DNA of 64,000 nt, taken from positions 1,364,001-1,428,000 of the forward strand of contig OZ020488.1 of the NCBI GenBank assembly GCA_963971405.1. The letters are read 5' to 3'. Both the position numbers and the translations under genes were made by a program. Below, piece after piece: positions 22,389-43,878 of the stretch. This DNA is from Psococerastis gibbosa. Taxonomy: Eukaryota > Arthropoda > Insecta > Psocodea > Psocidae. Every line of letters starts with the position of its first letter. The stretch's first letter is position 1. Below the pieces are notes generated by a model. That model searched no databases, was not told the DNA's origin, and saw only the letters and a list, made by a program, of their open reading frames with translations.

Positions 22389-22485
22389 GGTACTTGTGGT
22401 CCAGCGGTTAAGACGATGCCCCGGTTAGGCGTAGATCGTGGGTTCGAATCCCACCACCCAGTTTTTCTATTTCTTCTAATTTTCG
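22389..22485 (+). repeat. tRNA-derived SINE, copy 1
   Basis: The A box TGGTCCAGCGG and B box GGTTCGAATCC are separated as in a tRNA, and the anticodon- and T-arm-like segments can be drawn (GTGGG/CCCAC). The acceptor ends do not pair. The same head plus tail (TTTTTCTATTTCTTCTAATTTT) recurs on the minus strand at 57914-58018, so homology extends past the tRNA part and this is a SINE family rather than a tRNA gene. Confidence 0.75.
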
Positions 22486-28540: not shown

Positions 28541-28546
28541 AGCATT
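28541..28546. repeat. Left target-site duplication of the Polinton (AGCATT)
   Basis: The hexamer AGCATT directly precedes the 5'-AG of the element and is repeated immediately after its terminal CT at 43873-43878. A 6-bp duplication is the known Maverick/Polinton integration footprint. Confidence 0.93.
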
Positions 28547-28562
28547 AGTAGTATAGAAAGGG

Positions 28563-28925
28563 CGGTTCTGGCACAAAATCCCAGCTATCCCATCTATCCC
28601 ACCCCGTCGTGCTATCCCCCGCGGGTGGTCTATCTATTTTTGTGTGTTATCCCTCGTGGGTGGTCTGAGGTTCTGGCACAAATCCCACCCCCCGTCGAGC
28701 TATCCCATCTATCCCACCCCGTCGTGCTATCCCCCGCGGGTGGTCTATCTATTTTTGCGTGTTGTCCCTCGTGGGTGGTCTGAGGTTCTGGCGCTTACCC
28801 CACCCCCTGTCGAGCTACCCATCTACCCCCCCCCCCCGTCATGCTACCCCTCGCGGATGGTCTGAGGTTCTGGCGCTTATCCCCCCCCCCCCATCGAGAC
28901 CCGTGGGTGGTCTTTCTATGGCCCT
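28563..28925 (+). repeat. Subterminal minisatellite in left TIR
   Basis: Four imperfect units start with GGTTCTGGC and carry CCCGCGGGTGGTC or CCTCGCGGATGGTC-like blocks separated by poly(C). Unit length is about 108-115 bp in the first two and shorter later. The mirror image lies at 43494-43856. The block CCTCGCGGACAGTC in the downstream cassettes is related. Such subterminal arrays may be binding sites for the element's replication or integration proteins; that is inference. Confidence 0.85.
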
Positions 28926-29292
28926 ATGATTGTTTTTTTTTTTGTATAATTACTAATTTGTGAGACACAGAGTTATATTTTTTTTTTTTTTTTATTTTTA
29001 TTTTTTTTTTTTAATGGTGTTAATTGAATTAAAACATTTCTTTCTTCTTCTTTCTTCTTCGTGGGTGGTCTTTGTACCCCGCCGTGCTTATCCCGTTGTC
29101 TATCTATCTCTGTACCAGGTGGGTGGTCTATGACGCACCCCCCCCCCCTCCCCGTACAGCGTACATCTAGAATGTTCCAAATGTGTCGTTACAAAAGGCA
29201 TCGCCTTGGGTTGAGGAGCTTAGTTGAAGCCAAACCTTCATTCAAGACTCAAGTAATACCACTTTATAAGTAAAATTGTATAATCTTACAAC

Positions 29293-29598
29293 ATGACATC
29301 TCTATTCAATAAAGTTAATGCCATCAACCAAGTAGCCGGGCCTACCATACCAATGCGAAAACTAGTGATTGGAGTTAAATACCTAATATTGAAAATAGTG
29401 CAAATCGAAAAAACAGAATATGGACCAGCTGTAAAAGTCATACTGCGAGGATTGGAAAAAGAAGTCGTGGAATGTTTTGTGCCTCAACAATATCTGCCAG
29501 CCTTTCAACAAAGTGAAGTTACTCCAGGAGCTGAGATGTATCTTATCGTTTCAAGCCATCGGGGAAAAAATAGTGTCAACCTACAGATCATAGAATGA
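29293..29598 (+). CDS. 101-aa TIR protein, possible OB-fold ssDNA-binding protein (left copy)
   Basis: An intact 101-residue frame lies entirely inside the left TIR, so an identical copy exists at 43124-42819 on the other strand. It has the pattern GVKYLILKIVQIEKTEYGPA followed by a short VKVILRG strand and FVPQQYLPAF. This resembles small proteins common in arthropod Polintons and related repeats, whose 'TKYG...VFLP' pattern is suggestive of an OB-like, nucleic-acid-binding barrel. I infer a DNA-binding role in replication, but there is no catalytic motif to confirm it. The start follows a conserved leader, also found upstream of the polymerase gene. There is no signal peptide or membrane segment. 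Confidence 0.7.
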   Translation: MTSLFNKVNAINQVAGPTIPMRKLVIGVKYLILKIVQIEKTEYGPAVKVILRGLEKEVVECFVPQQYLPAFQQSEVTPGAEMYLIVSSHRGKNSVNLQIIE

Positions 29599-29873
29599 AT
29601 ATTTCATGATGTATTATTATTGTAAACTACAGAAATAATGTAAATATATGAATAATTTCTATATATATTTTTGTTCTTGTTTTATTAATTTCATAACTAG
29701 TTTTAAGCTTACAGTTAGATGATGATGAGTATTAAAAACTAATGTTTGAAAGAAACAAGCTATTGCTTCAGTCATAATCGAGTACTTGAACGGTGAAGGG
29801 TTATCATAATCATAGACTATGAAATGATGTAAATCAAATAATTAAACGAGTACATTAGCTAATTTTAATAAAT

Positions 29874-30250
29874 CTATCCGAAGCATAGGTTTATGGGAAG
29901 TATTGATTTGGTAAATAGTTAACCGTGTGCAGGTTCAAACCTGTTGTGAATCACCAGGTGCATATAACTCTGTACAGCCGTCTAATGGTTCAGACAAACA
30001 ACACATTAATAAATCTACCCCTCGCGGACAGTCCATTGTAAGCTAATGTGATTTTTGTTTTCGTAAATCTATCCAACACTTATATTGAAGGGAAGTATTG
30101 ATTTGGTAAACAGAGTGCAGGTTCAAACCTGTTGTGAATCACCAGGTGCATATAACTCTGTACAGCCGTCTAATGGTTCAAACAAACAAGCCATTAATAA
30201 ATCTACCCCTCGCTGACAGTCCATTGTAAGCTAAAGTGATTTTTGTTTTT
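29874..30250 (+). promoter_or_regulatory. Two tandem ~188-bp leader cassettes (left TIR)
   Basis: Two units of about 188 bp share the order GGAAGTATTGATTTGGTAAA, GTGCAGGTTCAAACCTG, TCACCAGGTGCATATAACTC, TACAGCCGTCTAATGGTTCA, CTACCCCTCGC-GACAGTCC and GATTTTTGTTTT. They end about 30 bp before the ATG of the 233-aa gene. The same cassettes occur inverted in the right TIR and again, diverged, upstream of the polymerase at 41503-41765. Their position before every early-type gene suggests promoter modules; CATATAAC could serve as a TATA-like box. Function is inferred. Confidence 0.6.
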
Positions 30251-30277
30251 GCATCAGTTGCAATCGGTCGTTAGAAA

Positions 30278-30979
30278 ATGAAGGGTGTCTTTACCACATA
30301 TTATCCGCTTCGTGATGGACAAAGTGTTATTGTTGGATTACAATTAAAAACATCAGAATTCGAAGTATACGTCGTAGTTGTTGATAAAGATCAGGAAATT
30401 GTATTCAATATGATTGAATGGGAGTTCTGGTGTGCAACATTACCATTATTTCGATTATATCTCCGTAAGAAAACAGTGTGCTACAACGGAAATATACTAT
30501 GGACACCTAATTTCATCAAATCAAACCTGACGATGATGTTAACGAATGATAATGAATTGGAAGTGAAGTCTCCATCATCACACATTAAGCTATCTAGAGT
30601 AAATATTGAGAACATACAAGCATTGAAAGCTATTCTTCATATTGTATGCTGTGAGTTGGAGGAGAAGAAGATGCAGGCTAACTTCCACTTAAAAAATATC
30701 TTGAAAGACGTATACATGGACTTGGAAACAGATGACGTTTCAATGGAAGCTTTTTTACAGTTTGTGCAATCACCAACTCCAATAGTAGCAACTATCGAGG
30801 ATGTTCGTTGTAAACTAGTGTCGAAGAAGTATCGAAATCAATCAAATCGTATATATTTAGAAATTATAACCATCTATGAAAATGAATTGTGCTCTGTGAT
30901 ACTTAAGCACTGGTTGGAGCGACCTCAAGTCAGTATGAACCAGACTGTTGAACATGATGAAACCGCTGGGAATAGTTGA
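30278..30979 (+). CDS. 233-aa unknown Polinton protein spanning the TIR boundary
   Basis: The intact frame starts at an ATG directly after the leader cassettes. Residues 1-79 lie in the left TIR and residues 80-233 in unique sequence, so the gene straddles the repeat boundary. I do not recognise the family. The N-terminal part is beta-rich in appearance (VGLQLKTSEFEVYVVVVDKD, FNMIEWEFW); the C-terminal part is charged and helical. A truncated chimeric copy occurs in the right TIR (42139-41822) and a 5' remnant before the polymerase (41469-41341). The stop overlaps the next gene's start by about 23-26 bp. It is probably accessory and co-expressed with the 30954 gene. Confidence 0.75.
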   Translation: MKGVFTTYYPLRDGQSVIVGLQLKTSEFEVYVVVVDKDQEIVFNMIEWEFWCATLPLFRLYLRKKTVCYNGNILWTPNFIKSNLTMMLTNDNELEVKSPSSHIKLSRVNIENIQALKAILHIVCCELEEKKMQANFHLKNILKDVYMDLETDDVSMEAFLQFVQSPTPIVATIEDVRCKLVSKKYRNQSNRIYLEIITIYENELCSVILKHWLERPQVSMNQTVEHDETAGNS

Positions 30980-31451
30980 GTTTCAAGGTTTCAAAGATAA
31001 TGAAAACAATTTCATCATCAAAGAATTGGCTATGGGCTCTGCATACGATGACCAGTATGAGCATTGGTTTTTCCGTCCACCCTTTCCATTCGCCAATCTT
31101 ACAGCTCAAGTAAAAAGCAGCAACACATGGAGCACAAATAATCTCCATAAACTTCGTTGGGAAGAGGGGAACGTGAACTACATTTGGCTAAAGAACATTT
31201 TACTTGAGTTTGCTAATCAGTATACTAGAATTGCTACTAAAGGAGGAGAGAAGCAAGTATGGCTTGCAGGAATACTAGAACGTGTTGTATATGACTTGGA
31301 CTCTGTGGTTCTGGCAAGTTTTCAGAAGTTACCACCTGTAGAAGCTAAACAATGCATTCACACGGGAAACTGCGCGTTGATAAATTTGAAGAAACTACAG
31401 AAATGGTTTCAAGATGTCTATTGTTTCATTGATCATGATGAGGTTGATTAA
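30954..31451 (+). CDS. Uncharacterised Polinton protein, possible inactive exonuclease-like fold
   Basis: About 165 residues starting at the ATG at 30954 or 30957 (the frame is open slightly upstream from a TTG). Motifs read as VEFQGFKDNENNFIIKELA, HWFFRPPFPFANL, KGGEKQVWLAGIL, VYDLDS and CIHTGNCALINLKKL.KWF. From memory of the pattern this matches a family of uncharacterised proteins abundant in arthropod genomes. The 'V.D.QGF...KE' opening followed by a wide-spaced C-terminal block is reminiscent of RNase H-fold exonucleases lacking catalytic acids, which is a guess. It overlaps the preceding gene by a few tens of bases and is convergent with the integrase; an AATAAA at about 31453 directly follows the stop. 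Confidence 0.7.
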   Translation: MMKPLGIVEFQGFKDNENNFIIKELAMGSAYDDQYEHWFFRPPFPFANLTAQVKSSNTWSTNNLHKLRWEEGNVNYIWLKNILLEFANQYTRIATKGGEKQVWLAGILERVVYDLDSVVLASFQKLPPVEAKQCIHTGNCALINLKKLQKWFQDVYCFIDHDEVD

Positions 31452-31464
31452 AATAAAGTTATAT

Positions 31465-32379
31465 TTATAAAATATCAGTTTTATTAATCCATGTAGGTTT
31501 CGGGAAACCAAGCCATTTCACATATAATTTATCCTTAGATTTTTTCAAAACTTTCTCCACCAAATATACATCTGGATGCTTGGTTTTCTGCAACTCTTCC
31601 ATATACCATGAGCCCAAGATGGGTTCGCCATCCATAGCCTCAAGGAGATAGGTGGTAGGTCGAGTAGGTTGTACTAGACGCACGCGAAATACTTCTGTAG
31701 ACCAGTTCGGTTGGTAACCCTTCTCAAATAAGGCTTTTTGCTTGCTGATTCTGACAGGATCACCCTCTTGAAATTTCTGTTTGATAGTACCTTTCACATC
31801 AACAGCATTATACATGGATAATAATTTTGCTTCATGTTCTTCTCGCACATCAGCAGGACACATGTTAATCGTCCTATGCTTGGTAGTGTTATATTGTTGC
31901 ACTAGACGAGGTAGTAAATGCAACCACTTATAATTTCCCTGCAAGCTGAATTCCTTCCACATTCGATTTTTCAGAGTGCGATTCCAGCGTTCAATAATTG
32001 AAGCTTTCAGTGTAGAATACGTAGCATAATGATTAATGCTATATTGTTTTAGAAGACTTTTCATTCGCATGTTGAAAAATTCTAGTCCCATATCTGACTG
32101 GAGGTGAGCAGGAGCTTGTGGAGCTCTATTGAGAATTTTTATGAAAGCTTCAGTAACATTCTTCATAGATTTAGTTTTTACTGCTTCTGCATAACCGAAT
32201 TTTGTGAATGCATTTATCACTGTTAGAATATATTTATATCCTTTATTAATCCTTGAATATGGAATCATTTCCACTAGATCTGCTTGCCATAAATCATGCA
32301 TTCCTTTAAGAGTCACATGACGTCGAGGATAATTCCGTCGAGCAGGCCGATGAATTTCATCAACCAAAGCTTGCTTCAT
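31465..32379 (-). CDS. int: Retroviral-type DDE integrase with C-terminal chromodomain
   Basis: The 304-residue protein inserts the element's ends into host DNA. The catalytic core holds D34 (LWQADLVEM), D96 (LQSDMGLEF) and E130 (SIIERWNRTL), the D,D,E triad of the rve superfamily. A C-terminal chromodomain-like segment (about residues 269-304, DVYLVEKVLKKSKDKLYVKW, LGFPKPTW) probably directs target choice by chromatin binding; this arrangement is known in Polinton integrases. The N-terminal zinc-binding HHCC domain is short or absent. Its ATG overlaps the TGA of the upstream gene (ATGA, 32376-32379), so the two are co-expressed. The frame is intact, and an AATAAA is embedded near the stop. 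Confidence 0.95.
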   Translation of the reverse strand: MKQALVDEIHRPARRNYPRRHVTLKGMHDLWQADLVEMIPYSRINKGYKYILTVINAFTKFGYAEAVKTKSMKNVTEAFIKILNRAPQAPAHLQSDMGLEFFNMRMKSLLKQYSINHYATYSTLKASIIERWNRTLKNRMWKEFSLQGNYKWLHLLPRLVQQYNTTKHRTINMCPADVREEHEAKLLSMYNAVDVKGTIKQKFQEGDPVRISKQKALFEKGYQPNWSTEVFRVRLVQPTRPTTYLLEAMDGEPILGSWYMEELQKTKHPDVYLVEKVLKKSKDKLYVKWLGFPKPTWINKTDIL

Positions 32380-33074
32380 TGAATAATATTTGCTTCTCGC
32401 AATTCGCTTATAATATCAATGATTTCGTTTTGATGACTTGTATGTCCTGCAGCATGTGATGCATTAAGTAAGTGTAATCGTTCTACCAGTTCATTTGGAT
32501 CGTTCCAATACCGGTATTCACCACCAGATTTTATCCCAAATAGCTGTTTAATAATCTTTTGATATTTATAACGTTGACTGCCCCTCAGACGACCACTAGT
32601 GGTTAAATGAGCTCCAGTTCTTTCCAGCATATCTTTATAAGCTTGTAAATCTTCCGGAGTATAGTTTTCAGGCTTGTTCAAGGTTAATAATTCATATAAG
32701 CCCAATGTACCTTGCCATGTTTTATCTTCGATTGTGATTGAATCATCTTCATCATTGAAATGTACAGGGTATGAACCCAGCCTAAATATACCTTCATTAC
32801 TTCGTGTTAGTCCATAGTATGTATCAATGGTTTTCCTATTATAATGATCAGGTATAAATAAGTCTAAATATTTGCTAACTCCGGGTTTATTTATTGTTTT
32901 TTCTGGTGCTGTCTGTTTGTTCAACTCAATTAATTCTTGTAGTGGTTTCGAGACAGGTTTTAACTTTCGCTCTTGCTGAGCAGCCTCATTGTGTAGATCA
33001 CGTTTAAGATTAAGGTACTTTTGCTGCAGAGCTTTGCGTATGTTGACAATATTCTTGATAACTTTAGTATCCAT
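32376..33074 (-). CDS. Conserved Maverick/adintovirus protein of unknown function
   Basis: The 232-residue protein lies between the ATPase and integrase genes and overlaps the latter by ATGA. It has a charged, coiled-coil-prone N-terminus (about residues 10-50, KALQQKYLNLKRDL). The central block contains GTLGLYELLTLNKPENYTPE and LERTGAHL. The C-terminal block reads YRYWNDPNELVERLHLL followed by SHAAGHTSHQNEI and LREANII. This combination recurs in many animal Polintons and adintoviruses as an uncharacterised conserved protein. The GT.GL..LL segment suggests a virion or replication accessory, but no catalytic residues are apparent. Confidence 0.8.
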   Translation of the reverse strand: MDTKVIKNIVNIRKALQQKYLNLKRDLHNEAAQQERKLKPVSKPLQELIELNKQTAPEKTINKPGVSKYLDLFIPDHYNRKTIDTYYGLTRSNEGIFRLGSYPVHFNDEDDSITIEDKTWQGTLGLYELLTLNKPENYTPEDLQAYKDMLERTGAHLTTSGRLRGSQRYKYQKIIKQLFGIKSGGEYRYWNDPNELVERLHLLNASHAAGHTSHQNEIIDIISELREANIIQ

Positions 33075-33121
33075 ATCTACCTCACCGAGTCACAGTTGAA
33101 TGAATAATGATGAGTTGAGTG

Positions 33122-33817
33122 TTAAGCAGAGTTATTTATATCTTTGAAGTAGTGATCGAATCCCTGCCGATATCGTCCATCGTTTAATCCAAAATCTTTT
33201 GCAATAACTAGGAATGCATGTGACTCTTTCCATGCTTCGGCGCAGAGTTTCATGAATGTCGCTAAATCCATATCCCCCGCAACATGGTCTCTATACACAT
33301 TCTTTATATTAAGTAAATCCTGTTTGAATAGCACGATAAAATTCAAATTGTCTCGCAACAAATGTTTTGGAATAGAGGTATAGGTCTGAGTGAGATAGAA
33401 GCAATCAATCCCTTTATGACGACCCATACAGTAGACATTTCGAATTTCCGTTTGTGATTCACATGAAACATCGTCGAATATTAGCACAGAGTTAGGTTTG
33501 ATGTCAGAGAGTGGTGTAACCGAATCGCTTGACCCCGTAAAAGTCATCCCACGAATAGAATTTACATTTTTCTCAAGCTGCTGGTATTTATGTTGAAACA
33601 ATGTTTTGCAGAATAAGTATACATTTTCAAATCGTAGCCCAAACGGATGATATACCATACTGCATAGTAGGCTTGTTTTACCACAACCTGATGGCCCGCA
33701 GATTGCACCACGAATCGATCCGGGGAGTAAAGGTCCATGCTTTCTATTACTCCGTACATCTTCATCTTCTTGACTTAGAATCACACTGAACTTGTGTCTC
33801 TGTGGTACGAGCTTCAT
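33122..33817 (-). CDS. A32/FtsK-HerA-type DNA-packaging ATPase
   Basis: About 231 residues from the preferred ATG at 33817 (MKLVPQRHKF); the frame stays open to an ATG at 33871, but that would overlap the divergent PLA2 gene. Walker A is GAICGPSGCGKTSLLCSM and Walker B is SVLIFDDVS. An arginine-rich segment and the GRHKGIDCFYLTQTY block follow, matching the sensor region of viral genome-packaging ATPases. It pumps DNA into a preformed capsid. It is the first gene of a minus-strand trio (ATPase, 232-aa protein, integrase) diverging from the virion-protein cluster. The frame is intact and of usual length for Polinton ATPases. Confidence 0.93.
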   Translation of the reverse strand: MKLVPQRHKFSVILSQEDEDVRSNRKHGPLLPGSIRGAICGPSGCGKTSLLCSMVYHPFGLRFENVYLFCKTLFQHKYQQLEKNVNSIRGMTFTGSSDSVTPLSDIKPNSVLIFDDVSCESQTEIRNVYCMGRHKGIDCFYLTQTYTSIPKHLLRDNLNFIVLFKQDLLNIKNVYRDHVAGDMDLATFMKLCAEAWKESHAFLVIAKDFGLNDGRYRQGFDHYFKDINNSA

Positions 33818-33883
33818 TATATGACTGATAAAAAAGTTATAAATACCACTGTATATATGTATTTTACTCATTCACATTTGAGA

Positions 33884-34609
33884 ATGTCTATGGTGAACAG
33901 CATAATTAATAAGTTACCATTTGAAGCACATATCCCCGGCTATCAATTCTGCGGACCAGGCACCAAGTTAGAAAAACGATTAATTCGAGGAGATCGAGGG
34001 AGAAACAAACTTGATCAAGCTTGCCGTGAACACGATATAGCTTATTCGCAGTCATCAGATATAACTAATCGACACGTAGCGGATATAAAATTAGCAGATC
34101 AAGCGTGGCAACGTGTTAAGGCAAAAGATTCATCTATAGGGGAAAAAATTGTCGCTTTAGGTGTGACAGCTGCAATGAAAGTTAAACGAAAGCTGGGATT
34201 TGGGCTGAAGCGGAAAGTATCCTTCAGATCACTATTGACTTCAGCGAAGAAAGCGATAAAGCTTGCAAAACCACCCACTGTGGCGGATACAATCAAGATT
34301 GCTTATAAATCTGTGAAGAAATCAAAGGGAAATAAGGTGAAACTTCCCCGAATCATACCTATTGCCAAGACAGGTGGTATATTACCACTTATCCCGATAT
34401 TTGCGGGGCTTTCTGCACTAGGCGCTCTCTCTGGTGGTGCTGCAGGAATTACATCAGCTGTTAATAAAGTCCATAGTGCACAGAAAAAGTATGAAGAAAT
34501 GAAACGTCATAATCAAACTATGGAATCTATAGCTATTGGGAAAGGCTTGTATTTAGCGCCACATAAGAAGGGGAGTGGACTCTACTTGCATCCTTATTCA
34601 AAAAACTAA
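33884..34609 (+). CDS. Phospholipase A2-domain minor virion protein
   Basis: The protein has about 241 residues from the preferred ATG at 33884 (MSMVNSIINK; a second ATG is at 33890); the frame is open to 33794 but would overlap the ATPase. Near the N-terminus are the calcium-loop motif YQFCGPGT and the catalytic pair in DQACREHDIAY, the signature of parvovirus-type PLA2. A basic middle region (KVKRKLGFGLKRK) is followed by a hydrophobic, glycine/alanine-rich segment (ILPLIPIFAGLSALGALSGG) of the adenovirus minor-capsid type. Such a protein would help particles cross membranes; that role is inferred from parvoviruses. It ends 5 bp before the protease gene in the virion cluster. Confidence 0.9.
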   Translation: MSMVNSIINKLPFEAHIPGYQFCGPGTKLEKRLIRGDRGRNKLDQACREHDIAYSQSSDITNRHVADIKLADQAWQRVKAKDSSIGEKIVALGVTAAMKVKRKLGFGLKRKVSFRSLLTSAKKAIKLAKPPTVADTIKIAYKSVKKSKGNKVKLPRIIPIAKTGGILPLIPIFAGLSALGALSGGAAGITSAVNKVHSAQKKYEEMKRHNQTMESIAIGKGLYLAPHKKGSGLYLHPYSKN

Positions 34610-34614
34610 GTTGC

Positions 34615-34995
34615 ATGCCTCGGAACCGTCCAATGACTAATGTGGAACTTATAAAATTCACCGCTAACGTTCCTCATTTTCGCGGTGTGTTCATGCGAAA
34701 TGCATTGCCTCGCATACCATGGAAACATAATGAAGCTGGAATAATTAATTTAGATGATGCTATAGGACCTGGTACACATTGGGTTGCTTACCGAAAGATT
34801 AGAAACCGAGTTATATACTTCGATAGCTTCGGGGACTTACAACCACCATTGGAATTGAAACAATATTTCCACAACTGTACAATATACTACAACCATCAAT
34901 CGTATCAAACCTATTCAACATCAAATTGTGGGCAGTTATGTTTAAAATTTCTCTACATGAAAGATCCATTTTCCATACTATTAAAAGTTATATAA
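34615..34995 (+). CDS. Adenain-like cysteine protease (virion maturation)
   Basis: The 126-residue protein carries the adenovirus/Ulp1-type catalytic set: H55 in GTHWVAY, D70 in IYFDSFG, a glutamine near 95 in NHQSYQ and C105 in SNCGQLCLKFL. These enzymes cleave capsid and core proteins during assembly. It is short compared with adenovirus protease, but close to the usual size in Polintons. It follows the PLA2 gene by 5 bp and precedes the penton-like gene by 28 bp, consistent with a co-transcribed late cluster. The frame is intact. Confidence 0.94.
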   Translation: MPRNRPMTNVELIKFTANVPHFRGVFMRNALPRIPWKHNEAGIINLDDAIGPGTHWVAYRKIRNRVIYFDSFGDLQPPLELKQYFHNCTIYYNHQSYQTYSTSNCGQLCLKFLYMKDPFSILLKVI

Positions 34996-35023
34996 GTTAT
35001 GAATATGTTTGATTTATTGCATT

Positions 35024-35719
35024 ATGTCGCTAGCATTGACATTGAGCGGTAACGACTCATTGCTAAGTAGCAACTACTTCCCACCGATTGTACTTGAGGG
35101 TGCATGGGAAATCGGTTTGCTTGACCTCGAAACATACAATTCAATTCCTAATCTCTCAAATGGTGTCGTTAAAATTGTAAACAATTCAATTCCTCCGAAG
35201 ACTAGAATAATTGAAATACCAACTGGATCCTACGAATTGTTAGATGTAGTCAAGTATATTAATCAAGTGTGGGGTTCTGAAATCATACGGATACGCGCAA
35301 ATCGGAACACCCTACATTCGGAAGTTATGATAATACATGAAGACTTTGAAATTGAAGTAAATGAAGAACTAGGATACCTGCTAGGCTTTGGTTATGATGT
35401 GATGACATTTTTCCCTGGAGAAAGATATGAATCACCACATAGCATTAAAATATCCAAAGTCAATGCAATTCGAATTAATTGTAATATTACAAGTGGATCA
35501 TATTTGAATGGTAGACCATCACATGCCGTTCATGAATTTTATCCTAATGTACCACCTGGCTATCGGATTGTTGAAGCACCAAATACAATCATCTACCATG
35601 CTATAAATACGAATGTACTTACAAGTCTAACGTTAGACATTGTCGATCAAGACAACGAGACGGTTAATTTCCGAGGAGAAACTATTACTTTACGTCTTCA
35701 TTTACGTAAACGACAATGA
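35024..35719 (+). CDS. Penton-like minor capsid protein (single jelly roll)
   Basis: The protein has about 231 residues from the ATG at 35024 (MSLALTLSGN); the frame is open to a TTG at 35009. The C-terminal half has the strongly conserved block of Polinton/adintovirus minor capsid proteins: INCNITSGSYLNGRPSHAVH, then FYPNVPPGYRIVEAPNTIIY and VDQDNETVNFRGETIT. A beta-strand-rich pattern throughout fits a single jelly roll placed at the five-fold vertices. Its TGA overlaps the ATG of the next small frame (ATGA at 35716-35719). Confidence 0.9.
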   Translation: MSLALTLSGNDSLLSSNYFPPIVLEGAWEIGLLDLETYNSIPNLSNGVVKIVNNSIPPKTRIIEIPTGSYELLDVVKYINQVWGSEIIRIRANRNTLHSEVMIIHEDFEIEVNEELGYLLGFGYDVMTFFPGERYESPHSIKISKVNAIRINCNITSGSYLNGRPSHAVHEFYPNVPPGYRIVEAPNTIIYHAINTNVLTSLTLDIVDQDNETVNFRGETITLRLHLRKRQ

Positions 35720-35889
35720 GAGTATATATTGCACAGCGGTATGCACCATACATCATTCCACATCGGACTTCCACGCAAGCACGTTATATTCGGCTCACTA
35801 ACGAGAACAAGCAATATTTACAATCAATAGGTTTTAAAATCCACGATGACATCAATACTAAACGTGAAGGAGTCCATTCTCGTGGATGA
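35716..35889 (+). CDS. Small 57-aa ORF between the capsid genes
   Basis: The frame begins at an ATG that overlaps the penton-like gene's stop (ATGA) and ends at 35889, overlapping the start of the major capsid gene by 44 bp in another frame. It encodes a basic peptide with LTNENKQYLQSIGFKI. A short frame with an NK..L.S.GF motif at exactly this position is, to my memory, common in adintovirus/Polinton capsid clusters. The tight overlap on both sides supports translation by reinitiation or leaky scanning. Function unknown; it may be a minor virion peptide. Confidence 0.7.
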   Translation: MRVYIAQRYAPYIIPHRTSTQARYIRLTNENKQYLQSIGFKIHDDINTKREGVHSRG

Positions 35890-37060
35890 GAGTTTAACGC
35901 GTTATGAATACCATAAGATTGCACCCTATTCATCAAGTAGTCTAAATAATAATGATGAAATTCGCATACCAATCCATCAACAAGATATACTTACTCTACC
36001 ATGTGAAAGCCGACTGTATATTGAAGGGGTGCTAGAAAAAGGTGTGACAACAATTGCTTATGAAGATGAAGACGGGCTTAGCGCTAATGCTATGGCACAC
36101 TTATTCTCTGAAATACGCTATGAACTCAATGGGATAACTGTTGATCATGTGCGAAACCCTGGTATTGCTACTCAGCTTAAAGGGTTAGTATCATTCACCG
36201 CTCAAGATGCACAACGTCTTACAAACAGCTCATTTTATACCAATGCCAATAAAACAGAGAGGAACTTTAATTTTTGCGTGCCATTGAAAATGCTGTTTGG
36301 ATTTTGCGAGGATTTTCGACGAGTTCTACTCAACGTTAAACAAGAACTTGTGTTAGTGCGATCACGCAGCAATCTGAATGCCATGCGGGATCTTTCAAAC
36401 ACTAAAGACTTAACATTGAAACTAACTACTGTGCTGTGGGAAATACCTTTCGTAAGTGTGAGTGATAGCCAACGTCTTGAATTGCTGAGTGTACTAAGGG
36501 AAAACGTGCGGTTGCCTATTGGCTTTCGAACATGGCAACTGTATGAATATCCAAACATTCCCTCATCAACATCATCAATTAATTGGCCTGTGCGCATGAT
36601 TTCTTCAAGTGAAAAACCACGGTTTGCTATTATTGGCTTCCAAGCTGCCCGAGCGGATGATATTACGAAAGACGCTAGTGCCTTCGATCAATGTGCTATA
36701 CAACAAATGCAACTATTCCTCGGCTCAGAATGCTATCCATACCATCCGCTACAGGCGAACTTCAACAAAAAGGCTGTCGCTGTGTTGTATGAAAATTTTC
36801 TCAATTTCCGGAAACACTACTACATGCAGGATGAAGCAGCCCCAAACGTTTCCCGTAGTGAATTTCTAAATTCATACCCGATTTGGATTATTGACTGCTC
36901 GCGACAGAATGAGCTCATTAAAACAGGTGGTGTCGATATACGTTTGGAAATTCATGGCCAAACTAATTTCCCTAATAAAATGAATGCCTACTGTCTACTC
37001 ATCAGCGACTGCTTATATGAATATGTACCTTTAACTGGTATTGTACATCAACTATTGTAA
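35846..37060 (+). CDS. MCP: Major capsid protein (double jelly roll, hexon-like)
   Basis: The 404-residue protein has the Polinton MCP opening: VDESLTRYEYHKIAPYSSSS, then DEIRIPIHQQDILTLPCESR and LYIEG. The remainder alternates beta strands and loops, ending in YCLLISDCLYEYVPLTG. This protein forms the trimeric capsomers of an icosahedral particle; the double jelly-roll fold is known for Polinton MCPs. It closes the plus-strand cluster PLA2, protease, penton, small frame, MCP, and converges on the polymerase gene. Length and integrity are normal. Confidence 0.94.
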   Translation: MTSILNVKESILVDESLTRYEYHKIAPYSSSSLNNNDEIRIPIHQQDILTLPCESRLYIEGVLEKGVTTIAYEDEDGLSANAMAHLFSEIRYELNGITVDHVRNPGIATQLKGLVSFTAQDAQRLTNSSFYTNANKTERNFNFCVPLKMLFGFCEDFRRVLLNVKQELVLVRSRSNLNAMRDLSNTKDLTLKLTTVLWEIPFVSVSDSQRLELLSVLRENVRLPIGFRTWQLYEYPNIPSSTSSINWPVRMISSSEKPRFAIIGFQAARADDITKDASAFDQCAIQQMQLFLGSECYPYHPLQANFNKKAVAVLYENFLNFRKHYYMQDEAAPNVSRSEFLNSYPIWIIDCSRQNELIKTGGVDIRLEIHGQTNFPNKMNAYCLLISDCLYEYVPLTGIVHQLL

Positions 37061-37340
37061 ATGAATGTAAACCATTTTATGATATAATAATTTTATAATA
37101 CATATATTTTAAAAGAAATCAATGTCTTTTCATATAATCACTTAAAACAAGCTTTTAAGCCTAAGACTTATCTATAATACAATAATGACCATGAGCTAAA
37201 CGAATGTAAACCATTTTATGATATACAAATTTTATAATACACATATTTTAAAAGAAATCAATGTCTTTACATACAATCACTTAAAACAAACTTTTAAACC
37301 TAAGACATATCTATAATGCGATAATGACCATGAGCTAAAC
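37061..37340. repeat. Tandem ~140-bp duplication at the MCP/polymerase junction
   Basis: Two consecutive units (about 37061-37200 and 37201-37340) share GAATGTAAACCATTTTATGA, AAAAGAAATCAATGTCTTT, CTATAATRC and AATGACCATGAGCTAAAC. The distal part of unit 2 codes for the last residues of the polymerase (LAHGHYRIIDMS), so unit 1 contains an untranslated duplicate of the gene's 3' end. It lies in the convergent intergenic region and may carry 3'-end signals for both genes. The units differ at several positions, so the duplication is older than the TIR homogenisation or has drifted. Confidence 0.9.
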
Positions 37341-40300
37341 TATCAATTCCATTACGACACACATACCGTTTATCATCATAAGGACTAAGAGTGACTTTTT
37401 GCTGTTTAATTGTAAAAAGCTTATGATCTCTACTTTGAATACGGAACATTGGTTTACGTGAGTCTTTTGCTATGCAAGGCTTAAATAAGGTATTGTAATA
37501 GTCTTGATGGTTAATATGATGTTTAAGGGTTGAACGAACTATACCTTTGCCCACTTTCTTCTCCTTTCCCTCCTCTAAAAGGGAATACAATTTTGGGCGT
37601 AAAGCAACACATTGTAAAATGTGAGATTGAGCATTTTCATCTTTGAACGTTCCCACTTTCTTTTTATTTTCAATATTGTATAAGAGATGGTTCGGAGGAT
37701 ATACTGAGTTATCAAATAAATGGGGATATGGTTTTAAATCAGTGTACAAATCATCACTCTCAACCTCATAAACGAGCGAATCTGTATCTGTTAAAATCAG
37801 TGCAGCTTTATCACCATACATTTGTTTTACAAAGTTATAATGAAATTCGTACATAACTACCTTGGATAGTTCGAGAACGGTTAGGCCAATAAATATTGGC
37901 TTGTTTAGCAAAATATTAGTTTTTTTTGACCGGACTGCTATTAAATCGTTTGAAAAAATCTTAAAATCTTTAAATGCAGGGGATGAGATAAGTTTACGAG
38001 CTCGTTTGGCAGTGTTAACTAACTCTAATTTTGCGTGATTTCTAACATTCTCCATTGTCTTCCCATACATACTATTAATTTTCAATTTATAAAAATCCTT
38101 CTCGAAATCATTACAAGCTAATTTCCGTTTTTCTGTGTTAAAATCGATAAAGGGTCGCATCCAAGCGCTTTGCTTAAAAGCTAAAATTTTATGTATACAT
38201 TTTAATTTTAATCCCAATTCTAAACATTGCTTCAAATTTCGATAATGTATTATATAGTTGTGTTTATCGTTTAAGTTGGGAATAAGCTTTGAGATGTTGG
38301 ATGTTAAAGATATATCATTTTCAGCGAGAAATTCCTTACAATAGGGGGAAATCATGTCTGATGTTACAACACAATGTTCAGCTGCTAGTGGGTATTCATT
38401 ATGTAAATCATGTAATTTTTGTGGATATTCCATGTCCACCTGTAATATGAACCCATCATCGCCCTCATCAGGTGCGAGCATTACATTAAAGTTTTTGATT
38501 TCTTCCTCCTCCATCCAGCGAAACCCACTAATAGGTAAAAATTGACGCATCGCATGTCCGTATAAGTTAGTGCAATCCCAATATACTATAAATTTGGATG
38601 GCTTATTTGAGTCAAATTTTTTTAAGTATTTATTGTTGCTTTCCGCAAATCTTTTAGAAATCATACTTATACCCCCGCGAATCCCAGCCTCACAAAACAA
38701 ATACATATCAGGTTCGCTCAATAGCTCAAGTTCTACTCCTGTCATTTTCAGACAGCTCTGAAGAGCTAGCCCTGGTGCTGTGTACATGTGACAAATTTCG
38801 AGGTTATCGTTTTCAAAACATAAGGCTCTAAAGGCTTCAAAAACATCGCAAAGGAGAAGGGTGTCTGTTAATACATACAAGTCTTGGTATTCTCCTAAAT
38901 TCTTTATACTAAAAGCATTCCACACCTTTTGAGCATGTTCATATTTTTCTTGTGAAATCCCCTCTTGAGTTAATTGACTAAAAAATGCATCGATTGGAGG
39001 TAAGTGTTCCTCATTAAATTTTGACTCGTGCGTTATATATTCATAGGGGAAGACACCCTTCCTCAACATCAAGTCTAATTTTTCACCCTCAAAACATGTT
39101 TTCATAATTTTAAATTTGTTTTTATTCGCATCAACAAGATTTTTAACTAATGAATCTAATGAGGAGGCCATAAATTGATAAGTGTCTAAAAAGCGTAACT
39201 CTCCAATACTAAAGGCTATATATTCCTCCATAGTTTTAGCTATACAAGTAATATTCATATTTTTTAGTTTCCCAACCCCTTCCATGATAAGATGGCCATC
39301 ATAATGTTTTAAGTTATGCATAAAAACGGGGATATGTTTTGGAGTTCGAAAATTGCTCATATTACAGACATTATGTAATGCTTGTCTATATTTCCCCGTT
39401 ATATGGCAGTGGTCTATTACACGATCAGTTCCTAGTGGTTTTTGACAAACATTACAAATGACAGAGTTTTTAAAATTTTCTCTATCCTCGTCAGTCATAA
39501 TTACTGCTTTAATATTTTTATAAATTTTTAAAATTTCATCCTTAACATTTAATAACGATTTCAAAAACACATCAACAGCATTGGCTCCCCTGTAAACTAC
39601 CGGTTCTTTAAACTTATTCCCATTGATATCTACAACAACATAACAAAACCCTGATGGTATATGTGCAGATAATTTTTCAGTGTTACAAATAGTCCCTTCA
39701 ACGGGACTGAGAATGCTCTCGAAATCGGCATATATTCTATATGCTACAGGGATCATATATTGTGGCTTATCAAATTTCATAGTGCTTTTCTCCTTAATTG
39801 GAAATGTGGTTTTTTGAGGATCATGTCTTGAGCAGAGTGGCTTATGTTCATGTAAGCGTTCAGCACTACTAAAGGCGTGTATGCACCAACGACAATAAAA
39901 CTTTTTTTGCTCATGTTTAGTGATTGAGAAATTAAGTTTGTTGAAATTTTTAATAAGACAATAATGTGAATTTTCGTCTTCCGTTATGTAAAGCAGATCC
40001 ACCTGCTTATTATAATGGTGACTTTGTGATAAATATAATGGGTACAGTCTGTGATCATAACCAAACACATTTACTCCAATATTATTATTTTTTTCAAATT
40101 TTGAAATGACTTGCAAAGATACTGGGTAAGTTATACCACTCATATCTAACTCTTTCTCATACTTTTTATAATAATCAACACGCTGACCATTCCTACTTAC
40201 TGGATGTAAGTATGCTAAAATTGACCATATAAAACATTTGAGATCGTCATTTTTAATATTGATTACTGCTTTAGTGTTATAGATTTTTTTGGGTAAAGGG

Positions 40301-41280
40301 ATGTAACTACTACCACTGCATGGATTATATTCAGCAATAAAAATAACAAAACGTTTTAAAGATTTCAACACCCACCCGCTTCCCATTGCTTGAAATTTAT
40401 CTATTTTTACTAAAATTTGTTCAATCATTTGTTGATATTTTATTGTGGAGTCATCAGTGAGGAAAAGTTGTTCGTTTTTAGCATGAAACCATGCTTCAGT
40501 ATAGTTTTTATTATTGTCGGGTCCGCGTTCAAATTTAATGTGTAAGGCTACATACCATTTAATTGCATTAAAAAGTTTAATGTTTTCAGTTGTAATAGAA
40601 TCAACCTCACCTTCCATATTATTTAAATATACAACGGGATCATGTATGGTTATGTTTTTATAATTGTATTGTTTTACTACACCATCTAGAGCTATAGATG
40701 TTTTGCATAAAAAGTTCTCCTCGTTAGATAGTGTTCCCCCGCTCATAATTGTGCAATTATTCTTATGATTAGTAAAATCTTCCCTCATAAACAATTTCTT
40801 GCAATTCAAACAATTAATAATATGTATGCTTAATATGTGGACTTTCAAACTATACTTCCGAGCAAAAGGGACCGAACAGAATTCACAAATATATTTACAC
40901 TCAAGGGTTTTAACAGATACAGGATTCTCATACTTACACGAAAAGATAGATGAACATTCTTTACACAGAACTGTAAGTGGACTGGAGTTGTTGATTTTGC
41001 CCCCGCATGCCTTGCAGTCCTCTCCATTCCCAGCAGATGTCAGTTTTGGGCGAGTTTGTACAATTTCCATCCCGTGATTTGCTGATGTATGCCGCTGCAA
41101 TATATGATGAGATAGGTCCTCTCTGCATGTGAATGTGGCTTTACATTTTTTGCATGGTATAATACTAACTCCATGTTTGTTTATGACATGTCTTTTTAAA
41201 TTGCAATTTAGTGTGAAACTCACAGCACATATTCTACACACATATTCCCTCGCGTTCAGTTTCCTTTTCTTCGATTCCAT
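37300..41280 (-). CDS. POLB: Protein-primed family B DNA polymerase with zinc fingers and HNH-like insert
   Basis: The 1326-residue enzyme replicates the element from its TIRs. At the N-terminus are C2H2 fingers (about residues 15-36, 43-64, 132-153) and a C-x2-C pair at 89-92. A further Cys/His cluster is at 463-485. The 3'-5' exonuclease follows: Exo I D519/E521, Exo II around 655-662 and Exo III Y802-D806. Between Exo I and II, residues about 609-640 contain C-x2-C ... DHCHITGKYRQALHNVCN, an endonuclease VII/HNH-like zinc site. Polymerase motifs are A (D902-x3-LYG), B (KLKINSMYG, 1065-1073) and C (DTDS, 1165-1168). The frame is intact. Its leader duplicates that of the TIR 101-aa gene. Confidence 0.96.
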   Translation of the reverse strand: MESKKRKLNAREYVCRICAVSFTLNCNLKRHVINKHGVSIIPCKKCKATFTCREDLSHHILQRHTSANHGMEIVQTRPKLTSAGNGEDCKACGGKINNSSPLTVLCKECSSIFSCKYENPVSVKTLECKYICEFCSVPFARKYSLKVHILSIHIINCLNCKKLFMREDFTNHKNNCTIMSGGTLSNEENFLCKTSIALDGVVKQYNYKNITIHDPVVYLNNMEGEVDSITTENIKLFNAIKWYVALHIKFERGPDNNKNYTEAWFHAKNEQLFLTDDSTIKYQQMIEQILVKIDKFQAMGSGWVLKSLKRFVIFIAEYNPCSGSSYIPLPKKIYNTKAVINIKNDDLKCFIWSILAYLHPVSRNGQRVDYYKKYEKELDMSGITYPVSLQVISKFEKNNNIGVNVFGYDHRLYPLYLSQSHHYNKQVDLLYITEDENSHYCLIKNFNKLNFSITKHEQKKFYCRWCIHAFSSAERLHEHKPLCSRHDPQKTTFPIKEKSTMKFDKPQYMIPVAYRIYADFESILSPVEGTICNTEKLSAHIPSGFCYVVVDINGNKFKEPVVYRGANAVDVFLKSLLNVKDEILKIYKNIKAVIMTDEDRENFKNSVICNVCQKPLGTDRVIDHCHITGKYRQALHNVCNMSNFRTPKHIPVFMHNLKHYDGHLIMEGVGKLKNMNITCIAKTMEEYIAFSIGELRFLDTYQFMASSLDSLVKNLVDANKNKFKIMKTCFEGEKLDLMLRKGVFPYEYITHESKFNEEHLPPIDAFFSQLTQEGISQEKYEHAQKVWNAFSIKNLGEYQDLYVLTDTLLLCDVFEAFRALCFENDNLEICHMYTAPGLALQSCLKMTGVELELLSEPDMYLFCEAGIRGGISMISKRFAESNNKYLKKFDSNKPSKFIVYWDCTNLYGHAMRQFLPISGFRWMEEEEIKNFNVMLAPDEGDDGFILQVDMEYPQKLHDLHNEYPLAAEHCVVTSDMISPYCKEFLAENDISLTSNISKLIPNLNDKHNYIIHYRNLKQCLELGLKLKCIHKILAFKQSAWMRPFIDFNTEKRKLACNDFEKDFYKLKINSMYGKTMENVRNHAKLELVNTAKRARKLISSPAFKDFKIFSNDLIAVRSKKTNILLNKPIFIGLTVLELSKVVMYEFHYNFVKQMYGDKAALILTDTDSLVYEVESDDLYTDLKPYPHLFDNSVYPPNHLLYNIENKKKVGTFKDENAQSHILQCVALRPKLYSLLEEGKEKKVGKGIVRSTLKHHINHQDYYNTLFKPCIAKDSRKPMFRIQSRDHKLFTIKQQKVTLSPYDDKRYVCRNGIDSLAHGHYRIIDMS

Positions 41281-41340
41281 GCTGTACGATTACACAAATT
41301 CACTACACTGAAGTGGTATTACGCGAATGAAGGTTCGGTT

Positions 41341-41469
41341 TCAACTAAGCTCCTCAACCCAAGGCGATGCCTTTTGTAGCGACGACCACCCATGAAGGAT
41401 AGACGGTAAGGGTACAGGGATAGATTGTCCATCACGAAGCGGATAATATGTTGTTAAGACACCATTCAT
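41341..41469 (-). pseudogene. 5' remnant of the 233-aa gene fused to the polymerase leader
   Basis: A 42-codon frame begins with the start of the 233-aa gene (MNGVLTTYYPLRDGQS) and then runs into TIR-like minisatellite/leader sequence, stopping at 41341. It shows that a third, diverged TIR fragment lies next to the polymerase. The first 17 codons are recognisable and the rest is not homologous to the gene. It may simply be a fossil, or an upstream frame before the polymerase ATG at 41280. Confidence 0.75.
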
Positions 41470-41502
41470 TTTCTAACGATCGATTGCAACTAATGCAAAA
41501 AC

Positions 41503-41765
41503 AAAAATCACTTTAGCTTACAATGGACTGTCAGCGAGGGGTAGACTTATTAATGGCTTGTTTGTTTGAGCCATAAGACGGCTGTACAGAGTTATATGCA
41601 CCTGGTGATTCACAACAGGTTTGAACCTGCACTCTGTTTACCAAATCAATACTTCCCTTCAACCTAAGTGTTGGATGCACCTGGTGATTCACAACAGGTT
41701 TGAACCTGCACCCTGTTATTTGTTTACCAAATCAATACTTCCCTTCAACCTAAGTGTTGGATAGA
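41503..41765 (-). promoter_or_regulatory. Leader cassettes upstream of the polymerase
   Basis: One full and one partial copy of the 188-bp cassette are present, with CAGGTTCAAACCTG-like (inverse GGTTTGAACCTGCAC), GGTGATTCACAACAGG and ACTTCCCTTCAA phrases. They are diverged from the TIR copies. Together with the 41281-41395 leader, which matches the leader of the 101-aa gene (CCAAGGCGATGCCTTTTGTA), they suggest the polymerase acquired TIR-derived promoter modules. Confidence 0.6.
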
Positions 41766-41821
41766 TTTACGAAGCCATGGGCTTATATTTACTAAGTGGT
41801 AAGGGTGATTTTGTGTTAACA

Positions 41822-42139
41822 TTAATTAGTTTCTGTTGAATATAGAGTGGCTAAAATTGCGAATACATATGATTGGATGAAAGCTACGGCTGTTTCTAAA
41901 GTAAAATTAGGTGTCCATAGTATATTTCCGTTGTAGCACACTGTTTTCTTACGGAGATATAATCGAAATAATGGTAATGTTGCACACCAGAACTCCCATT
42001 CAATCATATTGAATACAATTTCCTGATCTTTATCAACAACTACGACGTATACTTCGAATTCTGATGTTTTTAATTGTAATCCAACAATAACACTTTGTCC
42101 ATCACGAAGCGGATAATATGTGGTAAAGACACCCTTCAT
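41822..42139 (-). pseudogene. Truncated chimeric copy of the 233-aa gene (right TIR)
   Basis: The first 79 codons are identical to the left-TIR gene at 30278; homology then ends at the TIR border (41904) and 26 unrelated codons follow before a stop at 41822. The 105-residue product lacks two-thirds of the full protein. It retains its leader cassettes, so it could be expressed as a short isoform, but is more simply a by-product of TIR duplication. Confidence 0.85.
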
Positions 42140-42167
42140 TTTCTAACGACCGATTGCAACTGATGCA

Positions 42168-42545
42168 AAAACAAAAATCACTTTAGCTTACAATGGACTG
42201 TCAGCGAGGGGTAGATTTATTAATGGCTTGTTTGTTTGAACCATTAGACGGCTGTACAGAGTTATATGCACCTGGTGATTCACAACAGGTTTGAACCTGC
42301 ACTCTGTTTACCAAATCAATACTTCCCTTCAATATAAGTGTTGGATAGATTTACGAAAACAAAAATCACATTAGCTTACAATGGACTGTCCGCGAGGGGT
42401 AGATTTATTAATGTGTTGTTTGTCTGAACCATTAGACGGCTGTACAGAGTTATATGCACCTGGTGATTCACAACAGGTTTGAACCTGCACACGGTTAACT
42501 ATTTACCAAATCAATACTTCCCATAAACCTATGCTTCGGATAGAT
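42168..42545 (-). promoter_or_regulatory. Two tandem leader cassettes (right TIR)
   Basis: Inverse of the left pair at 29874-30250, with the same motifs in the same order relative to the truncated 233-aa copy. Near-identical to the left pair. Confidence 0.6.
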
Positions 42546-42818
42546 TTATTAAAATTAGCTAATGTACTCGTTTAATTATTTGATTTACATCATTTCATAG
42601 TCTATGATTATGATAACCCTTCACCGTTCAAGTACTCGATTATGACTGAAGCAATAGCTTGTTTCTTTCAAACATTAGTTTTTAATACTCATCATCATCT
42701 AACTGTAAGCTTAAAACTAGTTATGAAATTAATAAAACAAGAACAAAAATATATATAGAAATTATTCATATATTTACATTATTTCTGTAGTTTACAATAA
42801 TAATACATCATGAAATAT

Positions 42819-43124
42819 TCATTCTATGATCTGTAGGTTGACACTATTTTTTCCCCGATGGCTTGAAACGATAAGATACATCTCAGCTCCTGGAGTAACT
42901 TCACTTTGTTGAAAGGCTGGCAGATATTGTTGAGGCACAAAACATTCCACGACTTCTTTTTCCAATCCTCGCAGTATGACTTTTACAGCTGGTCCATATT
43001 CTGTTTTTTCGATTTGCACTATTTTCAATATTAGGTATTTAACTCCAATCACTAGTTTTCGCATTGGTATGGTAGGCCCGGCTACTTGGTTGATGGCATT
43101 AACTTTATTGAATAGAGATGTCAT
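42819..43124 (-). CDS. 101-aa TIR protein, possible OB-fold ssDNA-binding protein (right copy)
   Basis: The 101-residue frame encodes the same protein as 29293-29598, residue for residue as read here. Keeping both open copies identical suggests either very recent duplication by TIR homogenisation or selection. The leader upstream (43141-43230 region) includes CCAAGGCGATGCCTTTTGTA, also found before the polymerase. See the left copy for motifs; function as a DNA-binding protein is inferred. Confidence 0.7.
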   Translation of the reverse strand: MTSLFNKVNAINQVAGPTIPMRKLVIGVKYLILKIVQIEKTEYGPAVKVILRGLEKEVVECFVPQQYLPAFQQSEVTPGAEMYLIVSSHRGKNSVNLQIIE

Positions 43125-43493
43125 GTTGTAAGATTATACAATTTTACTTATAAAGTGGTATTACTTGAGTCTTGAATGAAGGTTTGGCTTCAACTAAGCT
43201 CCTCAACCCAAGGCGATGCCTTTTGTAACGACACATTTGGAACATTCTAGATGTACGCTGTACGGGGAGGGGGGGGGGGGGGTGCGTCATAGACCACCCA
43301 CCTGGTACAGAGATAGATAGACAACGGGATAAGCACGGCGGGGTACAAAGACCACCCACGAAGAAGAAAGAAGAAGAAAGAAATGTTTTAATTCAATTAA
43401 CACCATTAAAAAAAAAAAATAAAAATAAAAAAAAAAAAAATATATAACTCTGTGTCTCACAAATTAGTAATTATACAAAAAAAAAAACAATCA

Positions 43494-43856
43494 TAGTGCC
43501 ATAGAAAGACCACCCACGGGTCTCGATGGGGGGGGGGATAAGCGCCAGAACCTCAGACCATCCGCGAGGGGTAGCATGACGGGGGGGGGGGGGTAGATGG
43601 GTAGCTCGACAGGGGGTGGGGTAAGCGCCAGAACCTCAGACCACCCACGAGGGACAACACGCAAAAATAGATAGACCACCCGCGGGGGATAGCACGACGG
43701 GGTGGGATAGATGGGATAGCTCGACGGGGGGTGGTATTTGTGCCAGAACCTCAGACCACCCACGAGGGATAACACACAAAAATAGATAGACCACCCGCGG
43801 GGGATAGCACGACGGGGTGGGATAGATGGGATAGCTGGGATTTTGTGCCAGAACCG
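43494..43856 (-). repeat. Subterminal minisatellite in right TIR
   Basis: Inverse of 28563-28925, with the same GACCACCCRCGRGG blocks and poly(G) runs; poly(G) lengths differ from the left copy. Confidence 0.85.
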
Positions 43857-43872
43857 CCCTTTCTATACTACT

Positions 43873-43878
43873 AGCATT
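43873..43878. repeat. Right target-site duplication of the Polinton (AGCATT)
   Basis: Second copy of the hexamer AGCATT, directly after the terminal CT of the element. Confidence 0.93.

What the first reader, a model, noticed from the sequence alone, without database searches (positions are those of the whole stretch)
28547..43872. Apparently intact Polinton/adintovirus with full TIRs and target duplication
Seen: AGCATT on both sides, AG...CT ends, TIRs of about 1.97 kb that are almost identical, and no stop or frameshift in polymerase, integrase, ATPase, protease, both capsid genes and the PLA2 gene. Polintons are often decayed; a copy this complete is likely recent and could be mobile or virion-forming.
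Basis: partly seen in the sequence, partly recalled or inferred. Interest (0 to 1): 0.88.

Follow-up and report, generated by a model that had tools for sequence, protein, structure and literature searches.

The report
Recently multiplied Polinton with mirror copies
The stretch is a complete, apparently undamaged virus-like transposon (a Polinton/Maverick) that exists in many nearly identical copies in its probably insect host, alongside odd mirror-image versions that look like by-products of copying as free linear DNA.

Summary
In detail: an element at 28547-43872 with an exact 6-bp target duplication (AGCATT), AGTAGT...ACTACT ends, and TIRs of 1967 and 1969 nt differing by 3 substitutions and 3 C-run indels. 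Ten large ORFs are open. The gene set is that of published insect Mavericks, PLA2 included, so alone it is a new member of a known kind. The host genome (409 Mb, TTAGG telomeres) adds more. MCP gave 103 scored matches, 83 at 99-100% and 20 at 92%; one has a stop (lower bound). Four other copies are identical over 4212 nt. The window's 26-nt terminus occurs 82 times in 28 end pairs; 27 of 28 have exact, all different target duplications. Unexpected are mirror elements with the Pol arm on both ends (RR) or the integrase arm on both ends (LL): 9 of 12 testable ones have exact target duplications, and one RR form with a single junction recurs at 6 loci. Best reading: a recent burst through free linear genomes that also yields DI-like mirrors needing proteins in trans. 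Virions and present activity are unproven.

The parts
28541..28546 (.). Target site duplication AGCATT, left copy
43873..43878 (.). Target site duplication AGCATT, right copy
28547..30513 (+). Left terminal inverted repeat (1967 nt), AGTAGT end
41904..43872 (-). Right terminal inverted repeat (1969 nt)
28583..28863 (+). 115-bp subterminal tandem repeat (2.4 copies) with GGTTCTGGC, a motif also found near the terminus; mirrored at 43585-43836
29185..29292 (+). Upstream module of ORF101, shared with Pol; contains the dyad AAGGCATCGCCTT
29293..29598 (+). ORF101, an ORF inside the TIR (second copy 42819-43124, minus strand); no relatives found
30278..30979 (+). ORF233, starts inside the TIR; no relatives found. 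The right TIR holds a truncated copy, 41822-42139
30954..31451 (+). ORF165, unknown
31465..32379 (-). Integrase (rve), D34, D96, E130 in place; C-terminal tail resembles a chromodomain by eye only (no Pfam match)
32376..33074 (-). P232, unknown; position matches ORF2 of Sf Mavericks
33122..33871 (-). A32-like packaging ATPase, Walker A and B intact (start at 33871 or 33817)
33821..34609 (+). PLA2 capsid-associated protein (CAP of Sf Mavericks); Ca loop and HD motif intact
34615..34995 (+). Adenain-like cysteine protease (below Pfam cut-off; GTHW and FDS by regex, NCG seen in the translation, missed by my regex)
35024..35719 (+). Penton-like minor capsid candidate, by position only
35846..37060 (+). 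Double jelly-roll major capsid protein, 404 aa
37058..37340 (-). 139-bp tandem duplication over the 3' end of Pol and its 3' flank, between the convergent stops of MCP and Pol
37300..41280 (-). Family B DNA polymerase, 1326 aa; N-terminal C2H2 fingers, EndoVII-like insert, six exo/pol motifs intact
41273..41773 (-). Relics of TIR segments just inside the right TIR, including the Pol upstream module

Best explanation
The element is an intact copy of a recently amplified Maverick/Polinton family in an arthropod (probably insect) genome. Its own Pol copies it as free linear double-stranded DNA starting at the TIRs, and its integrase inserts the copies with a 6-bp target duplication. Free replication also makes mirror genomes in which one arm has replaced the other. 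These keep a replication origin at each end and re-enter the chromosome using whatever protein they lack, supplied by full copies, much as defective interfering genomes do. Shown: intact genes, burst, independent insertions, mirror elements with target duplications, and one mirror form at six loci with the same junction. Inferred: protein priming, the free linear stage, supply in trans, and any virion.
For: Gene set and motifs. MCP: 103 matches scored of 875 candidates, 102 without a stop. Pol: 35 scored of 1327 candidates, 35 open. INT: 130 scored of 843 candidates, 126 open; 66 of 84 in the near-identical group score the same as the window's. INT lies at the standard offset and strand from MCP in 73 of 83 A and 18 of 20 B copies. 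Four other copies are identical over 4212 nt. End pairs: 28, of which 27 have exact TSDs, all different. Mirrors with exact TSD: RR C3:45.86M, C1:5.88M, C1:46.09M, C13:10.14M, C20:16.12M, C3:40.45M; LL C2:38.10M, C19:6.48M, C1:43.55M. The same 36-nt junction sits at all 11 arm/core borders checked, over 6 loci.
Against: Three of 12 testable mirrors lack a TSD (C1:25.65M, C2:39.3M, C1:3.44M). Their middle pieces hold no N, the centre of C2:39.3M is a perfect palindrome, and C1:3.44M has two different termini, so misassembly or rearrangement is possible there. Four of the nine with TSDs have 200 N inside (C1:5.88M, C1:46.09M, C3:40.45M, C1:43.55M). One normal end pair of 28 lacks a TSD. Pol has no Pfam polymerase match. 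No terminal protein was identified. No reads, RNA or particles were available. A one-off mirror could also arise inside an inserted copy.
Confidence: 0.74

Rival explanations
1. The mirrors form in the chromosome: break repair or gene conversion copies one arm over the other through the shared TIR, keeping the original flanks and target duplication.
For: It would keep the TSD, and the 1.97-kb TIRs supply homology. TIR edges, relics and truncated gene copies in the window suggest repeated copying from one end to the other.
Against: The Pol-only RR form has the same junction and related core at 6 loci, and the flanks seen differ, so that form moved after it arose. One-off mirrors such as C3:45.86M and C2:38.10M are not excluded from this rival.
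Confidence: 0.3
2. The mirror loci are assembly artefacts: arms of two different insertions joined at near-identical sequence.
For: Copies are nearly identical; four of nine TSD-bearing mirrors have 200-N gaps inside; three mirrors lack a TSD.
Against: Exact 6-bp TSDs in 9 of 12 testable mirrors. The pieces fetched for C3:45.86M, C2:38.10M, C19:6.48M, C13:10.14M and C20:16.12M hold no N.
Confidence: 0.1
3. An ordinary young transposon burst with no viral stage: capsid genes are carried along and movement is purely inside the germ line.
For: Copies lie within one genome; no virion evidence; particles have not been seen for Mavericks (abstract of PMC8097293).
Against: Capsid genes are about as intact as Pol and INT, but the burst is too young for intactness to show selection. 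The two readings are not separable here.
Confidence: 0.4
4. An adintovirus in the strict sense.
For: DJR capsid, integrase and Pol together; integrase tail resembles a chromodomain by eye.
Against: No OTU-like domain found in Pol by profile search; the N terminus holds C2H2 zinc fingers. The published definition asks for OTU (PMC11071296, passages).
Confidence: 0.2

Closest known systems
Sf Maverick 1 and 2, Spodoptera frugiperda (PMC5803895; section 11 read in full, other passages)
   Same: ATP-ORF2-INT and CAP(PLA2)-PRO-ORF6-ORF7 blocks in the same order; the 404-aa size of ORF7 equals the MCP here; PLA2 domain; EndoVII-like stretch in Pol; called apparently intact
   Different: Here the ATPase-P232-INT block runs opposite to the capsid block; Pol is longer (1326 vs 1162 aa); there are extra ORFs in and next to the TIR. 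No copy-number burst or mirror forms were described in the section read.
Intact vertebrate Mavericks (PMC8097293, abstract and passages)
   Same: (AGT)2//(ACT)2 ends, 6-bp TSD, TIRs, intronless intact genes
   Different: Vertebrate TIRs 46-1447 bp, here 1967-1969; most intact copies in one vertebrate genome was 38, while here 102 MCP copies lack a stop (one gene, so not the same measure)
Insect group II Mavericks (PMC10328495, passages: 12 intact insect elements)
   Same: Insect-type gene set
Defective and symmetrical genomes of protein-primed linear viruses such as adenoviruses (recalled; the ten titles listed did not show a paper on them)
   Same: Both ends derived from one end, replication origins kept
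   Different: Here they are integrated in a host genome with target duplications

Membership tests
Polinton/Maverick | 6-bp target site duplication | tested here: met
   AGCATT; 27 of 28 end pairs in the genome
Polinton/Maverick | TIRs with AGT-type ends | tested here: met
   motif as in PMC8097293
Polinton/Maverick | rve integrase | tested here: met
   Pfam 1.4e-10; solved integrases 1e-4; DDE in place
Polinton/Maverick | protein-primed family B polymerase | tested here: inconclusive
   Six exo/pol motifs in order, but no Pfam or PDB polymerase match; priming not testable
Polinton/Maverick | FtsK/A32-like packaging ATPase | tested here: met
   Pox_A32 4.5e-9, above cut-off
Polinton/Maverick | adenain-like protease | tested here: inconclusive
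   Peptidase_C5 E 0.0047, below cut-off
Polinton/Maverick | double jelly-roll major capsid protein | tested here: met
   PF21738 1.5e-90; 1264 relatives
Polinton/Maverick | single jelly-roll penton | tested here: inconclusive
Insect PLA2 Mavericks | PLA2 protein next to the protease | tested here: met
   precedent
Adintovirus | Pol with N-terminal OTU-like domain | tested here: inconclusive
   No OTU match in Pol pieces in a Pfam scan listing E up to 10 (HMMER's filters drop most weak matches); zinc fingers instead. A diverged OTU is not excluded
Adintovirus | Hexon recognisable by BLASTp with reference adintoviruses | not tested
   Reference sequences not available here

The most novel reading that the evidence does not exclude
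This family behaves in the germ line like a DNA virus with its own defective interfering genomes. Mirror LL and RR genomes arise during free linear replication, are copied and integrated with proteins supplied by full copies, and at least one (a Pol-only RR form) has become a spreading satellite lineage, perhaps with deleted descendants.
Probability: 0.5. Interest if true: 0.82.

Novelty: new variant of a known kind. Interest (0 to 1): 0.64.

Why it matters
Whether Polintons replicate as free linear DNA and act as viruses is a long-standing question, and particles have not been seen. Mirror elements with target duplications are a possible genomic footprint of how the DNA was copied before insertion. 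A genome with this many young, nearly identical copies is a good place to look for free element DNA, transcripts and particles. If mirrors occur elsewhere, they offer a simple sequence test for free linear replication.

Tried and rejected
A tRNA-like or Pol III feature in the TIR repeats: Rfam gave nothing there. Relatives in IMG/VR, GTDB genomes and phage records: none found. Relatives of ORF101 and ORF233: none found. An apparent loss of polymerase motifs was my regex; the motifs are present. Structure predictions were never accepted, so folds of ORF101 and the penton candidate are untested. The genome-wide count of the RR junction was not obtained, nor the search with ORF233. The host species was not identified. 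For absence of mirror Polintons from print I rely on two listings only, in an open-access library.
Full report
1. The observation. The element at 28547-43872 is flanked by AGCATT on both sides and ends in AGTAGT...ACTACT. The TIRs are 1967 and 1969 nt; they differ by three substitutions and three indels in C runs. Substitution divergence is 0.15% (95% interval 0.03-0.45%). With an insect rate near 3e-9 per site per generation (recalled) this gives an age of the order of 10^5 generations. That assumes the arms were identical at insertion and not corrected since.

2. Genes. On the left: ORF101 (inside the TIR), ORF233 (starts inside the TIR) and ORF165. Then, on the minus strand, ATPase-P232-integrase; on the plus strand, PLA2-protease-penton candidate-MCP; and on the minus strand, Pol. 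Pfam supports integrase, ATPase, PLA2 and MCP; the protease is below cut-off. Pol is recognised by six ordered exonuclease and polymerase motifs and an EndoVII-like stretch. Those regexes were written after seeing the protein, motif names are recalled, and no polymerase profile matched. The MCP has 1264 relatives; among the 120 listed, the named ones are from insects at 40-42% and the best is an unnamed contig at 66%.

3. What is known already. Sf Mavericks of Spodoptera carry the same kinds of genes, including the PLA2 protein, in the same order within each block, though there all eight small ORFs lie on one strand (PMC5803895). A PLA2 domain is also noted for Polinton-like genome fragments of Tribolium and the pea aphid (PMC3671162, passages). 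Krupovic et al. showed MCP and penton in Polintons (PMC4028283, passages). Intact Mavericks are published for vertebrates (134 in 17 species, PMC8097293) and insects (12, PMC10328495). So the single element is a new member of a known kind.

4. TIR anatomy. The upstream region of ORF101 and that of Pol are copies of one another. The similarity ends just inside the two start codons (29150-29300 versus 41419-41273; E 1e-24). They share a dyad whose only other match in the window is in the other TIR (3 matches with up to one mismatch, 0.09 expected). Pieces of the ORF233 upstream region and its first codons also lie just inside the right TIR at 96%, and the present TIR stops inside ORF233. I infer repeated copying of end segments from one side to the other. 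A shared early promoter is a guess.

5. The host genome. The window is C13:1364001-1428000 of a 409-Mb assembly in 68 contigs. A TTAGG 30-mer occurs 21,159 times (overlapping matches), with an array at the end of C1, so the host is probably an insect (telomere motif recalled). MCP gave 103 scored matches of 875 candidates: 83 at 99-100% (82 open, one TAG) and 20 at 92% (all open). INT gave 130 of 843: 84 at 98-100% (four with a stop) and 46 at 93-94% (none). Pol gave 35 of 1327, all open. These are best-scoring matches only, so totals are lower bounds and open fractions are biased upward. INT sits at the standard place beside MCP in 73 of 83 A and 18 of 20 B copies; 11 A and 28 B integrases lack a listed MCP there. 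In the first eight MCP loci, four are identical over 4212 nt (one of them is the RR element of paragraph 7); the window copy differs from them at 4 sites, another copy at 4, another at 17, and one (C13:28.03M) lies beside unrelated or N sequence. In an 856-nt TIR block of 11 elements, left-right differences total 26 in 9247 and between-copy differences have a median of 0.47%.

6. Insertions. The window's 26-nt terminus occurs 82 times and its reversed control 0 times. It forms 28 end pairs 11.2-19.6 kb apart; 25 contain an MCP, with a median length of 15,162. Exact TSDs: 27 of 28. That is 21 of 22 (the miss is C14:35.12M), plus the window and five. All 27 six-mers differ. Of the ten copies first sampled by position, one search found both ends in five (C14:41.49M, C2:15.64M, C13:9.78M, C14:15.06M, C2:7.62M), all five with exact TSDs; a sixth, C3:45.86M, was completed. 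In the other four (C3:11.34M, C12:3.81M, C12:17.46M, C13:39.20M) one or both ends were not found by the 14-nt search, so they were not tested.

7. Mirror elements. At C3:45.86M the Pol arm is on both ends and the capsid block in the middle. The junction joins 37257 to 33385 inside the ATPase gene; the layout leaves no integrase, P232 or ORF233; TSD AACCGG. At C2:38.10M (B group) the integrase arm is on both ends with capsid genes in the middle and, in the pieces fetched, almost no Pol; TSD TTAATT. Two more LL elements are C19:6.48M (GACTTC) and C1:43.55M (TATACG, complex middle with 200 N). A Pol-only RR form was found at C1:3.44M, 5.88M, 25.65M, 41.0M, 46.09M and C2:39.3M. All 11 arm/core borders checked share one 36-nt junction; the twelfth lies at an N gap. 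The cores are AT-rich, without ORFs of 80 aa, and largely palindromic: perfectly so over 600 nt per arm at 41.0M and 39.3M, 0.87 at 3.44M, 0.75 at 25.65M by an ungapped measure, while 5.88M and 46.09M have N there. TSDs match at 5.88M (CTCGTC) and 46.09M (CTCTAT); they do not at 25.65M, 39.3M and 3.44M (the last has two different termini); 41.0M cannot be tested because of N. Three more elements with the window's termini (C13:10.14M, C20:16.12M, C3:40.45M) have arms mirrored over at least 3.3 kb at 99.8-99.9% against 1.97 kb in the window control; the pieces fetched hold only remnants of Pol, and TSDs are exact. In sum 9 of 12 testable mirrors have an exact TSD; five of those nine hold no N in the pieces fetched and four have 200 N inside. 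Mirrors were found from inverted Pol pairs, inverted INT pairs and odd end pairs, so this is no census.

8. Mechanism. A linear genome with an origin in each TIR can replicate even if both ends come from one arm; such forms are known from adenovirus-type replication (recalled). RR forms lack integrase and LL forms lack Pol, so their insertion implies proteins from full copies. In-place conversion could make a one-off mirror and keep its TSD, but cannot readily put one junction and core at six loci. That part is the strongest evidence that a mirror form itself moved. Free linear DNA, protein priming and virions remain inferred.

9. Verdict. The adintovirus label is not shown. The mirror class is what a specialist would find new. 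I saw no such report in the listings of two searches, which cover open-access papers only.

Noticed in passing
window 37058-37340: A 139-bp tandem duplication repeats the last codons of Pol and its 3' flank between the two convergent stops.
   Followed up: partly
window 41273-41773: TIR relics inside the right TIR, including copies of the ORF101 and ORF233 upstream regions; the end of the element seems to grow by repeated copying.
   Followed up: partly
L030 and L053: The RR junction (37257|33385, group A) and the LL junction (37126|33561, group B) use nearly the same two places of the element; only a 10-nt inverted match lies between the zones. Chance or hotspot is unknown.
   Followed up: partly
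G000 C14:35115934-35130671: The only one of 28 end pairs without a matching 6-mer; perhaps a recombinant of two insertions.
   Followed up: no
G000 C13:1350428: A 93% (group B) integrase lies about 13.6 kb before the window's start.
   Followed up: no
window 18015-18464: Weak reverse transcriptase fragment (RVT_1, E 3.5e-6, below cut-off).
   Followed up: no
window 22395-22456 and 57939-58018: Two Rfam tRNA matches that ARAGORN did not report; possibly intron-bearing, decayed or SINE-like.
   Followed up: no
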